Source: Candidatus Rokuibacteriota bacterium (GTDB taxonomy: Bacteria; Methylomirabilota; Methylomirabilia; Rokubacteriales; CSP1-6). Taken from it: a stretch of DNA of 64,000 nucleotides. This document shows, one piece after another, positions 53,759 to 56,639 of the stretch (its first letter is position 1; each line of letters opens with the position of its first letter). The position numbers were made by a program, and so were the translations under genes. Under the pieces are notes generated by a model that saw only the letters and a program-made list of their open reading frames with translations, did not search any database and had not been told where the DNA came from. The stretch is from the NCBI GenBank assembly GCA_003220535.1, contig QHSU01000057.1, positions 231,397 to 295,396 on the forward strand, in the 5' to 3' direction.

Positions 53759-53810
53759 CGAAGTTCCTCTCCGTGCGGAGTACCCGATGTTTCCCGGGGC
53801 CGCGAAGTGT

Positions 53811-53887
53811 GCCCTCCCTCGGTAGCGCGGCCGTCAGATGCGTGCGGCCCGTCTCACGACGGGGGTGTGCCCTTACCTGGGAGGGTC
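53811..53887 (-). ncRNA. degenerate c-di-GMP-I (GEMM) riboswitch: P1 kept, CAAAGCCACGGG core deleted
   Basis: Minus strand ACCCTCCCAGGTAAGGGCACACCCCCGTCGTGAGACGGGCCGCACGCATCTGACGGCCGCGCTACCGAGGGAGGGC; aligns to the intact copy at 56309-56400. Confidence 0.6.
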
Positions 53888-53910
53888 TTTTCCTCTGGAA
53901 GACTAAGGGA

Positions 53911-53928
53911 TTGCACGGGGGGTGCCAA
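53911..53928 (-). promoter_or_regulatory. sigma-54 (-24/-12) promoter, copy A
   Basis: Minus strand TTGGCACCCCCCGTGCAA: GG and GC elements at consensus spacing. Confidence 0.7.
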
Positions 53929-54026
53929 GGAACGATCACGACGGGTCAGGCGCATCAAGATCTGGAAATCGCAGGAGCTTGAGCGGCTGTGTGGGAATCC
54001 GATCGGCGTATCTATGCTGAACGGCT

Positions 54027-54047
54027 ACGTGACACAAAGTGTCACGT
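54027..54047. promoter_or_regulatory. inverted repeat ACGTGACAC-AAA-GTGTCACGT, possible activator/enhancer-binding site
   Basis: Perfect 9-bp arms, about 100 bp upstream of the sigma-54 promoter copy A; degraded counterpart near 56535-56550. Confidence 0.55.
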
Positions 54048-54238
54048 TTCACAGTAATGTGCGCTTTCTGATATCTCTGCTTCGGGCGTCTTCCCGCAAG
54101 TCCCGGAGATGCTGAAGACGATCAACGCGATCGTCGAGCTCGACAAGGCGGCGAAGGCGGCCCCGAAGGCACCGTAGTGGGGACGTACGACGCCTTCGGC
54201 CGGTGGGAGCGTCGCGGCAGTGATCGCAGCGGTCGCCT

Positions 54239-55975
54239 CTATTCTTGCCAGCTGAAGGACAGCGTCAACCCGAAGGGAGCTGCCGGCGCCGCGGCCGGGC
54301 TGCAGACGCCCGAGATCGTGCAGGCTTGCCGGGCGTTCAGCGTATCGACGTTCACGCCGATGTCCGTCCCATCCGTCGCGAGGTTGCGATAGATCGACGT
54401 GGCAGCGAGATGGTAGTCCCCCGCCGCGAAGTTCACGAACCCCACAGCCAAGACCGTGACAGGGAAGAAGTTGTTGGCGGGATAGCTCAGGGAGCTTCCT
54501 CCGATCATCAGGTTGCGCGTGAACGGCGCCGCGGCGAAGCGCCCGTTCAGGGTTGGCGTGCCCTCGCCGAAGGACCCGGACACGAGTCCGAAGCTGCCGC
54601 GCTGGAAGATATTATTCTGGAACGTATTCGCCCCAGGCTCGAAGACCTGGTTCGTACTATCCTGCGCGTTGATGGGCGCCATGTTGGAGAACACGGTGTT
54701 GTGGTTGAAGACCATCTCTTGGGCGCTGTTGGGTTCGGGTGAGCCCGGGGAGTAGCTCGCGAAGGTCCAGGCGTTGCCGAGCCCACCCCAGGTCACCGAG
54801 TTGATGTCGTCGAAGAGGTTATTCTCAAAGAGGCCCCGCGCCATGTTGGACGAGGCGTTCGGGTCGTCATGCACGAGGAACTGGATGCCCGTTCCGCCGC
54901 TCTTGACGATGTTGTTCCGAAAGGTGATGTCTTGGACCCGCGATCCCGGATCAGTGCCGTTCTGGTTTCGGACGTTCAAGCGGATCAGTTGGCCCCCGTC
55001 CCCATTCGCGGGCACCCACGCGGTCTCGAAGCGGTTCCCCTCGATCAAGACGCGGGCCATGTTCTTCAGCTCGAAAGTTGTTTTCGCGACGACGCTCGTG
55101 CCGCGCCACCGGGCGGCATCCTTCGGGACGTAGTTATTGCGGAAGTCCAGGTCGGCCGGCCGGAGCGCGGCAGCGCTGGCGTCCGAGCCGCCGAACAGCA
55201 CATTGATCGCCGCCGCCTGGATGAAGTTATTGACGATCTTGAAGGGGCCCGATCCATTCCACGCGATCACGCCCTTGGACTCCCCGTCATCCCCCGAGAG
55301 GATTTGGTTCGGAGCGGCTTTCATGTCGTCCACGTAGGAGTCCAGCAGCGCGATCTTCGCACCATTCATCTGCACGCCGAACTTGAGCCCCGCCGAGAGC
55401 GCGGTCGAGAACGAATGCAGATACACACGGTCGAGCACGATGTTCGTCGCCAGCTGGCCGACGGTCGTCTCGGCGCCGCTGCCGATTCGGATCAGGGTGG
55501 CGTGCGGGGAGCCATTCGAGATGGTCACTTCGAGGCCGACGAGCCGCCACTGGCGGGCGCCGGCCAGGATGTCGATGATTGGGGTAAAACTCGCTCCCGT
55601 CCCCGGCCCCTGGATCTTCGGCATGTTCGTGGCGTTCGCAGGCCCGACGCGTGTCCCGGCGGCTGGCAGGGACGCAAGGGCGCTGCTCCGGATGATGATC
55701 CAGCCCGTCCCAGCCGCCCGCGCGGGGATCGTGAGAGCCCCGGTGAACGCGCTGCCCGCCTGGACGACGATCTCGTGGTTCAGGTTCGGGTTCGCCACGG
55801 CCGCGGCGTTGATCGCCGTTTGGATGCTGCCCCCCGCATTGACGGGGAAGGTCGATCCGGTAACCGCTGGAAGCGTGGTGTCGAAAGTGGTCGGAGGTGT
55901 TTGTGCCGAAGCGGGGGCGTGGACCCAGAGAAGCAGTCCGACGGTGACGGCGAACAGCCGGAACGCCGTCCTCAT
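54239..55975 (-). CDS. secreted right-handed parallel beta-helix protein, 578 aa
   Basis: MRTAFRLFAVTVGLLLWVHAPASAQ...GGSIQTAINAAAVANPNLNHEIVVQAGSAFTGALTIPARAAGTGWIIIRS...; intact frame. Confidence 0.88.
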   Translation of the reverse strand: MRTAFRLFAVTVGLLLWVHAPASAQTPPTTFDTTLPAVTGSTFPVNAGGSIQTAINAAAVANPNLNHEIVVQAGSAFTGALTIPARAAGTGWIIIRSSALASLPAAGTRVGPANATNMPKIQGPGTGASFTPIIDILAGARQWRLVGLEVTISNGSPHATLIRIGSGAETTVGQLATNIVLDRVYLHSFSTALSAGLKFGVQMNGAKIALLDSYVDDMKAAPNQILSGDDGESKGVIAWNGSGPFKIVNNFIQAAAINVLFGGSDASAAALRPADLDFRNNYVPKDAARWRGTSVVAKTTFELKNMARVLIEGNRFETAWVPANGDGGQLIRLNVRNQNGTDPGSRVQDITFRNNIVKSGGTGIQFLVHDDPNASSNMARGLFENNLFDDINSVTWGGLGNAWTFASYSPGSPEPNSAQEMVFNHNTVFSNMAPINAQDSTNQVFEPGANTFQNNIFQRGSFGLVSGSFGEGTPTLNGRFAAAPFTRNLMIGGSSLSYPANNFFPVTVLAVGFVNFAAGDYHLAATSIYRNLATDGTDIGVNVDTLNARQACTISGVCSPAAAPAAPFGLTLSFSWQE

Positions 55976-56262
55976 CAGCCGCTCGCTTGCGCGGGCGGGC
56001 GCGGCGTCGATGCGCCGGCCGCAGACAGGATCTCGATGCCGTTGAACCGGAAATGATGGGCCCCTGAGGCGGTCTGGATTGCCGATCCCACGCTTGGGCC
56101 GGCGACGAGCTTCGGCATGACGGCGGCGTACGAGAGGGTTGCGCGCGTACCCGGCGAGGGGAGGCTGCTGTCGGGGGCGCTGGTGCGGACGGTGATCCGG
56201 CGCCCGCCAACGGGGAGAAGAACGAGCGCGTGACGTACGCTCGAACCCGCTCCTGAAAACAT
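55975..56262 (-). pseudogene. deletion derivative of a beta-helix gene (95 aa), stop overlaps the start of the downstream intact gene (TGATG)
   Basis: MFSGAGSSVRHALVLLPVGG fused to RITVRTSAPDSSLPSPGTRATLSYAAVMPKLVAGPSVGSAIQTASGAHHFRFNGIEI. Confidence 0.75.
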
Positions 56263-56308
56263 CCTGGTCTCCCTTCGCGGAAGACCCGGTGTTCCCGGGG
56301 ACGAGCGC

Positions 56309-56400
56309 GCCCTCCTTCGGTAGCCCGGCCGTCAGGCGCCTTGCCTGGCCCGTGGCTTTGCAGCCCCGTCTCACGACGGGTGTGCCCTTATCGGGAGGGT
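56309..56400 (-). ncRNA. c-di-GMP-I (GEMM) riboswitch
   Basis: Minus strand CCCTCCCGATAAGGGCACACCCGTCGTGAGACGGGGCTGCAAAGCCACGGGCCAGGCAAGGCGCCTGACGGCCGGGCTACCGAAGGAGGG: GCAAAGCCACGGG core, GACGGCCGGGCTACCG 3' motif, GTGA loop and CCCTCC/GGAGGG P1 pairing. Confidence 0.82.
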
Positions 56401-56423
56401 CTTCCCTCTGAAAGACCAAGGAT

Positions 56424-56441
56424 TTGCACGGGGGGTGCCAA
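56424..56441 (-). promoter_or_regulatory. sigma-54 (-24/-12) promoter, copy B
   Basis: Minus strand TTGGCACCCCCCGTGCAA, identical to copy A, just upstream of the riboswitch. Confidence 0.75.
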
Positions 56442-56639
56442 GGAGCGATCACGACATGTCAGGCGCACCAAGATCTGGAAATCGCAGGGGCTTGAGCGGC
56501 TGCGTGGAATCCGATCGGCATATCGGGGCGAGTAACACGCAGTGTCACATTCGACCTCCATATGTGCTTTCTGGCACCTCTAGTTCGCGATGGGTCGCCA
56601 GCGTTGCCGAGTCCCTTGATCTGAGCCCCGACTTCGTTT

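What the first reader, a model, noticed from the sequence alone, without database searches (positions are those of the whole stretch)
53759..56560. Duplicated sigma-54 promoter + c-di-GMP-I riboswitch cassette controlling secreted beta-helix genes
On the minus strand, two ~280-bp related blocks (53759-54050 and 56263-56550) each carry TTGGCACCCCCCGTGCAA (consensus -24/-12 spacing) followed 20-40 nt downstream by a GEMM-like element. Copy B has the canonical GCAAAGCCACGGG...GACGGCCGGGCTACCG core and a closing CCCTCC/GGAGGG helix. Copy A also has a perfect 9-bp-arm dyad ACGTGACAC-AAA-GTGTCACGT about 100 bp upstream, where an enhancer-binding protein would sit. Stacking sigma-54/activator control with a c-di-GMP riboswitch on a secreted beta-helix protein inside an EPS locus is a two-layer biofilm-type switch.
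Basis: partly seen in the sequence, partly recalled or inferred. Interest (0 to 1): 0.85.

Follow-up and report, generated by a model that had tools for sequence, protein, structure and literature searches.

The report
Sigma-54 promoter plus c-di-GMP riboswitch cassette
In an uncultured soil bacterium of the Rokubacteria, and across its class, surface-protein genes carry a tightly spaced pair of controls, a promoter that needs an activator protein and an RNA switch that senses the signal molecule c-di-GMP; in this window one copy is intact and the second is a broken relic.

Summary
The core observation holds. Copy B (minus strand, dyad 56548 to start codon 56262) has a consensus -24/-12 sigma-54 box and a c-di-GMP-I aptamer (63.4 bits for RF03167, gathering score 59; 60.3 bits for RF01051, gathering score 35). 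Copy A keeps the dyad and the promoter but lacks about 20 nt of the aptamer core (13.4 bits) and heads a frame-broken gene, so it is a relic, not a second riboswitch. The pairing is not a coincidence of this locus: 96 of 121 c-di-GMP-I elements in own-class relatives have a sigma-54 box at a constrained distance (median 28 nt), against 0 of 12 in other phyla; about 1% of shuffled upstream sequences score as well. All three GTGACAC-N3-GTGTCAC dyads in the 7.2-Mb genome lie 101-112 nt upstream of a -24 box. Downstream, a hairpin that sequesters the ribosome-binding site is conserved, so the output is most likely translational. In copy B the intact beta-helix ORF follows a 95-aa remnant ORF through a TGATG stop/start overlap. 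Key ligand residues are canonical (G20, A47), so c-di-GMP is the predicted ligand. Whether ligand switches genes on or off is inferred. New: the class-wide linkage. Known: each part.

The parts
56532..56548 (-). Copy B upstream dyad GTGACACTGCGTGTTAC (1 mismatch), proposed enhancer-binding-protein site, centre 101 nt upstream of the -24 G
56425..56441 (-). Copy B sigma-54 -24/-12 promoter TTGGCACCCCCCGTGCA; predicted start near 56414
   Evidence: start site inferred from -12 spacing
56398..56406 (-). GGGAAGACC, conserved segment complementary to GGTCTTCC at 56286-56279 (proposed anti-sequestor); its last CC is shared with the 5' strand of P1
   Evidence: complementarity conserved; covariation weak
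56315..56395 (-). c-di-GMP-I (GEMM-I) riboswitch aptamer, with G20 and A47
   Evidence: RF03167 63.4 bits; RF01051 60.3 bits
56266..56286 (-). Hairpin GGTCTTCC-GCGAA-GGGAGACC that contains the Shine-Dalgarno sequence, 3 nt before the start codon
   Evidence: z = -3.1 here; 34 of 38 relatives below -1.5
55975..56262 (-). 95-aa leader ORF: remnant of a beta-helix paralogue (signal-like N-terminus plus fragment); its stop TGA (55977-55975) overlaps the next ATG
54239..55975 (-). Intact secreted right-handed beta-helix protein, 578 aa
54027..54047 (-). Copy A upstream dyad ACGTGACAC-N3-GTGTCACGT (perfect)
53912..53928 (-). Copy A sigma-54 -24/-12 promoter (intact)
53817..53880 (-). Copy A aptamer relic, lacking about 20 nt of the core
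   Evidence: (13.4 bits)
52230..53758 (-). Copy A gene: fragments of a beta-helix/Ig-like protein in several frames (119 aa, 116 aa, 254 aa)
11374..12987 (-). Second intact beta-helix paralogue (537 aa), without a cassette

Best explanation
Copy B is a two-input expression cassette. An unidentified enhancer-binding protein on the GTGACAC-N3-GTGTCAC dyad activates sigma-54 RNA polymerase at the -24/-12 box about 100 nt downstream. The transcript starts about 15-20 nt before a c-di-GMP-I riboswitch. The riboswitch's output is translational: a hairpin just before the start codon hides the ribosome-binding site, and a conserved segment just 5' of the aptamer can pair with the hairpin's 5' arm instead. 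Most likely c-di-GMP binding stabilises P1, favours that alternative pairing during transcription and frees the ribosome-binding site (ON). Translation of the short leader ORF is then passed to the beta-helix gene through the TGATG overlap. The result is an AND-type gate (activator signal and c-di-GMP) on a secreted surface protein in an EPS locus. Copy A is the decayed twin: its promoter would be activator-dependent, but it has no working c-di-GMP sensor and no intact product. Shown by sequence comparison: promoter, aptamer, dyad, hairpin, their linkage and spacing. Inferred: start site, polarity, kinetic switching, translational coupling, identity of the activator.
For: Rfam scores. Sigma-54 box at >=9 of 11 consensus bases upstream of 74% of 133 c-di-GMP-I elements against 1.2% of shuffles and 1.5% of sequence 290-400 nt upstream; by group 26/27 genus, 54/71 family, 16/23 order/class, 0/12 other phyla; -12 C to aptamer median 28 nt, interquartile range 25-31. 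The dyad with <=1 mismatch occurs at three sites in 7.18 Mb: copy A, copy B and a third; all three lie about 101-112 nt upstream of a sigma-54 box, the third before an FN3-type surface-protein gene without a detected riboswitch; in 10 genus genomes both perfect sites precede such cassettes. RBS-sequestering hairpin: mean z -3.5, 34 of 38 below -1.5; own arms pair better than arms swapped between loci, p about 1e-7. The genome has RpoN, GGDEF proteins and many NtrC-type activators including one over the PrsR cut-off; one such gene lies about 1.1 kb from the C89 cassette. Full-length beta-helix genes lie directly behind the same cassette in G002 and twice in G004.
Against: Equilibrium folding with the aptamer forced does not free the RBS (mean unpaired 0.24 to 0.25; 3 up, 2 down of 39), so the ON polarity needs co-transcriptional kinetics or tertiary effects not modelled. 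The upstream/downstream pairing is nearly invariant, so covariation supports it only weakly (34-67 of 1000 shuffles reach the observed values). The activator is unidentified. The leader ORF is a remnant, so coupling may be an accident of decay. No expression data. The assembly is a MAG (93.8% complete, 8.2% contamination). The elements in relatives share ancestry and are not independent events.
Confidence: 0.8

Rival explanations
1. Same sigma-54 plus c-di-GMP-I architecture, but an OFF switch: ligand-bound aptamer leaves the RBS hairpin folded and c-di-GMP lowers expression.
For: Equilibrium folding keeps the RBS hairpin in both states; GEMM-I aptamers are known as both ON and OFF switches (PMC9262584).
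Against: The conserved GGGAAGACC/GGTCTTCC complementarity flanking the aptamer has no obvious role in an OFF design; targets are surface proteins and pilin-like proteins, the usual c-di-GMP-induced class (general knowledge).
Confidence: 0.25
2. The local switch is vestigial: both copies are in decay (copy A broken, copy B heading a gene fragment), and the beta-helix gene is read from another promoter or only constitutively.
For: Copy A aptamer and gene broken; copy B leader ORF is a paralogue fragment.
Against: Copy B keeps all parts near consensus with correct spacing; the beta-helix ORF is intact, has relatives of 89-97% identity over nearly its whole length on other contigs, and starts exactly at the leader's stop.
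Confidence: 0.15
3. The -24/-12 match is a chance C-rich repeat carried along by duplication.
For: Copies A and B are duplicates, so their two matches are not independent; 12 of 100 shuffles of the window also give two matches with one mismatch allowed.
Against: Recurrence and fixed spacing in 96 of 121 class elements with different flanking sequence; genome-wide rarity.
Confidence: 0.02

Closest known systems
c-di-GMP-I riboswitch (GEMM-I, RF01051)
   Same: Passes the gathering score; conserved fold; G20 and A47 as in the c-di-GMP-binding type.
   Different: Linked to a sigma-54 promoter at fixed spacing, with a conserved RBS hairpin and a complementary segment 5' of the aptamer.
c-di-GMP-I-GGC (RF03167)
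   Same: Best-scoring Rfam model for these elements.
   Different: The model's consensus has G where all own-genome elements have A (position 47, GCAAAG), so the residue I take to define the variant is absent.
GEMM-Ib cGAMP riboswitches of Geobacter
   Same: Same fold; often before secreted or surface genes, including FN3-domain protein genes (PMC2996986).
   Different: Position 20 is G in copy B (A in the Geobacter cGAMP type, PMC6456294). One own-genome copy (C89) does have A20.
PEP-CTERM/PrsR sigma-54 box (Haft 2006, PMC1569441)
   Same: Sigma-54 promoter with upstream activator motif before surface-protein genes of EPS/XrtA systems; a PrsR homologue is present in the genome.
   Different: Haft's motif 1 ends in TTTACA and sits about 63 nt from the promoter; here a GTGACAC-N3-GTGTCAC dyad lies about 100 nt away, and a riboswitch follows.

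Membership tests
c-di-GMP-I riboswitch (RF01051) | Covariance score above gathering threshold | tested here: met
   Copy B 60.3 bits, threshold 35; copy A fails with any model
c-di-GMP-I riboswitch (RF01051) | Ligand-contact residues G20 and A47 | tested here: met
   numbering from my knowledge of Vc2, role of position 20 from PMC6456294
c-di-GMP-I riboswitch (RF01051) | Binds c-di-GMP | not testable with these tools
   needs in-line probing
c-di-GMP-I-GGC variant (RF03167) | Score above gathering threshold | tested here: met
   63.4 bits, threshold 59
c-di-GMP-I-GGC variant (RF03167) | G at position 47 (model consensus GCGAAG) | tested here: not met
   A in all 4 own and 23 other genus elements; that 'GGC' names this residue is my inference
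GEMM-Ib (cGAMP) riboswitch | A at position 20 | tested here: not met
   G in copy B; A only in the C89 copy among own elements
Sigma-54 promoter | TGGCAC-N5-TTGCA-like -24/-12 element with exact spacing | tested here: met
   10 of 11 consensus bases
Sigma-54 promoter | RpoN and enhancer-binding proteins encoded | tested here: met
Sigma-54 promoter | RpoN-dependent transcription start | not testable with these tools
   needs 5'-RACE and an rpoN mutant or heterologous host
PEP-CTERM/PrsR regulon box | 17-nt motif 1 ending TTTACA about 63 nt from promoter | tested here: not met
   Dyad here is GTGACAC-N3-GTGTCAC at about 100 nt; read by eye, no scan with the motif matrix
Right-handed beta-helix protein | Predicted beta-helix fold | tested here: met
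   AlphaFold2 pLDDT 83.7; PDB matches to lacto-N-biosidase and PL6 lyases; PF13229 in 17 of 39 homologues but not in the protein itself

The most novel reading that the evidence does not exclude
In the Rokubacteria/Methylomirabilota class the c-di-GMP-I riboswitch has become a fixed post-initiation module of sigma-54 promoters, controlling a dispersed regulon of surface proteins, pilin-like proteins and response regulators by an AND gate: activator signal for transcription, c-di-GMP for translation, through a conserved sequestor/anti-sequestor pair whose aptamer-flanking strand is set by the transcription start.
Probability: 0.5. Interest if true: 0.7.

Novelty: new variant of a known kind. 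Interest (0 to 1): 0.52.

Why it matters
It links two separately known controls in a fixed arrangement across a whole class of uncultured soil bacteria, gives a sequence handle on their c-di-GMP regulon (surface proteins, pilin-like proteins, regulators), and makes logic-gate behaviour testable with a roughly 300-bp cassette in a laboratory host. I found no paper in the held library describing this linkage; subscription literature was not searchable.

Tried and rejected
Two working riboswitches: rejected, copy A scores 13.4 bits. RF03167 ligand variant: rejected on A47. Equilibrium folding to decide ON or OFF: uninformative. Formal covariation of the upstream/downstream helix: weak, because the strands hardly vary. 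A first MAFFT alignment misregistered the upstream strand by one base in several rows, so anchored blocks were used instead. PrsR box as the activator site: the published motif reads differently. Intrinsic terminator as output: no T-run directly follows the hairpin in the sequences read; no formal terminator scan was run. The named-collection scan used one strict pattern and also returned evident chance hits (for example L157, L161, L170, L190, L195, L196).

Full report
Observation. On the minus strand the window holds two related blocks, A (54120-53700) and B (56620-56200), 303 of 396 aligned bases identical. Both carry TTGGCACCCCCCGTGCA with exact -24/-12 spacing. Within the window alone two such matches would be only mildly surprising (12 of 100 shuffles reach two with one mismatch allowed). 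Genome-wide the exact pattern TTGGCACN6TGCA occurs five times in 7.18 Mb, three of them at c-di-GMP-I cassettes or the relic. Block B has a c-di-GMP-I aptamer at 56395-56315: RF03167 63.4 bits over a gathering score of 59, RF01051 60.3 bits over 35. Block A has lost about 20 nt of the aptamer core and scores 13.4 bits.

Which organism. Relatives carrying the same cassette are named Candidatus Rokubacteria/Rokuibacteriota, and one Methylomirabilota. The window's genome has 162 contigs, completeness 93.8%, contamination 8.2%. The window contains homologues of XrtA/PEP-CTERM-type EPS genes: chain-length determinant, ATPase, export protein, glycosyltransferase, amidotransferase, O-ligase-like protein. 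Most score below the curated cut-offs of those specific models, so 'XrtA-type' is a resemblance, not a firm classification.

The linkage is real and class-wide. The genome has four c-di-GMP-I elements, and all four have a sigma-54 box 28-29 nt upstream, measured from the -12 C. In the relatives search, 64 of 149 genomes (G000 included) have c-di-GMP-I elements. I read 133 elements with enough upstream sequence: 74% have a site with at least 9 of 11 consensus bases, against 1.2% of dinucleotide shuffles and 1.5% of sequence 290-400 nt upstream. With core GG/GC and a distance of 14-50 nt required: 26/27 in the genus, 54/71 in the rest of the family, 16/23 in the rest of the order and class, 0/12 in other phyla. 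The distance is constrained (median 28, interquartile range 25-31), which puts the start of transcription about 16 nt before the aptamer. A pattern scan of named genomes found mostly Rokubacteria, and also plausible cassettes in Desulfobacterota, Gemmatimonadota and an Acidobacteria MAG, several before FN3-type secreted proteins, besides chance hits. The linkage is therefore not unique to the class, but I have no estimate of its frequency elsewhere.

The upstream dyad. GTGACAC-N3-GTGTCAC with at most one mismatch occurs at three sites in the genome: copy A, copy B and C139:7511. All lie about 101-112 nt upstream of a -24 element; the third precedes an FN3-type surface-protein gene and has no detected riboswitch. 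In ten genus genomes the perfect dyad occurs twice, both before sigma-54/c-di-GMP-I blocks, one of them being copy A, whose aptamer is a relic. Half-sites are enriched about threefold upstream of family cassettes. The position fits an enhancer-binding-protein site. RpoN is encoded and NtrC-type activators are numerous. The published PrsR motif (17 nt ending TTTACA, about 63 nt from the promoter; PMC1569441) does not read like this dyad, so the activator is unidentified.

Output. In most family cassettes the start codon lies 44-75 nt behind the aptamer and is preceded by a hairpin containing the ribosome-binding site. In 38 cassettes chosen by anchor sequence, mean z is -3.5 and 34 are below -1.5. 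Over all 67 family cassettes with such spacing the signal is weaker (mean z -1.8; 35 of 67), but own arms pair better than arms swapped between loci, p about 1e-7; loci are related, so this p is optimistic. A segment just 5' of the aptamer (GGGAAGACC) is complementary to the hairpin's 5' arm (GGTCTTCC), giving a plausible sequestor/anti-sequestor pair. Its covariation support is weak, and equilibrium folding with the aptamer forced does not move the balance. I therefore infer an ON switch with moderate confidence only.

Ligand. Position 20 is G and position 47 is A in copy B; across the class nearly all elements have G20, and A47 wherever it could be read. Position 20 A or G selects cGAMP or c-di-GMP in a Geobacter element (PMC6456294). 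So c-di-GMP is predicted. The RF03167 label reflects overall score; its consensus G at position 47 is absent here. The genome encodes GGDEF proteins; the three whose motif I could read have the canonical Asp in GHxxGD (that this Asp marks c-di-GMP makers is general knowledge).

Genes. Behind copy B lies a 95-aa ORF (56262-55975), a fragment of a beta-helix paralogue. Its stop TGA (55977-55975) overlaps the ATG of the intact 578-aa ORF 55975-54239 as TGATG, an arrangement that permits translational coupling (inferred). The 578-aa protein has no direct Pfam hit, but 17 of 39 homologues match Beta_helix; AlphaFold2 predicts a beta-rich fold (pLDDT 83.7) and Foldseek's best PDB matches are beta-helix enzymes such as lacto-N-biosidase LnbX and PL6 alginate lyases, so a polysaccharide-active or polysaccharide-binding role is likely. 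Behind copy A lie fragments in three frames. In relatives G002 and G004 (twice) the cassette directly precedes beta-helix genes matching over about 500 aa, so this target is conserved. Across the class the targets of cassettes with a sigma-54 box are 22 FN3-type surface proteins, 39 others with a signal-like segment, 10 response-regulator-like, 3 beta-helix, 2 pilin-like and 14 others, by simple text rules on predicted starts.

Verdict. Each part is known; the fixed class-wide coupling of a sigma-54 promoter to a c-di-GMP-I riboswitch with a conserved translational platform appears undescribed in the open literature I could search.

Noticed in passing
L010 / G000:C89:22707-22786 (-): One of the four own-genome c-di-GMP-I elements has A at position 20 (cGAMP-type in Geobacter), so two ligand specificities may coexist in one genome; an NtrC-type activator gene lies about 1.1 kb away.
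   Followed up: partly
L216 (G000:C139 near 7511): Third genomic GTGACAC-N3-GTGTCAC dyad (one mismatch), followed about 110 nt later by TGGCACTGACTTTGC and an FN3-type surface-protein gene, without a detected riboswitch: a possible sigma-54-only member of the regulon.
   Followed up: partly
11374-12987 (-): Intact 537-aa beta-helix paralogue without a sigma-54/riboswitch cassette, close to a divergent gene.
   Followed up: partly
41405-43864 and 43972-45936 (+): Two adjacent proteins; the first has RCC1 repeats and InlB-type repeat domains, the second looks alike by sequence (not scanned). Probably secreted.
   Followed up: no
56717-57343 (-): ORF with a partial, below-cut-off LamG-like match just upstream of copy B, probably a remnant of another surface protein.
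   Followed up: no
L093 and L130 (G004:C46): A close relative has two sigma-54/c-di-GMP-I/beta-helix units 5.7 kb apart, both matching over about 500 aa, plus part of a third beta-helix gene.
   Followed up: partly
L074, L075, L111, L121, L124 and others: In several family genomes the same cassette precedes response-regulator genes, suggesting c-di-GMP feedback on signalling.
   Followed up: no
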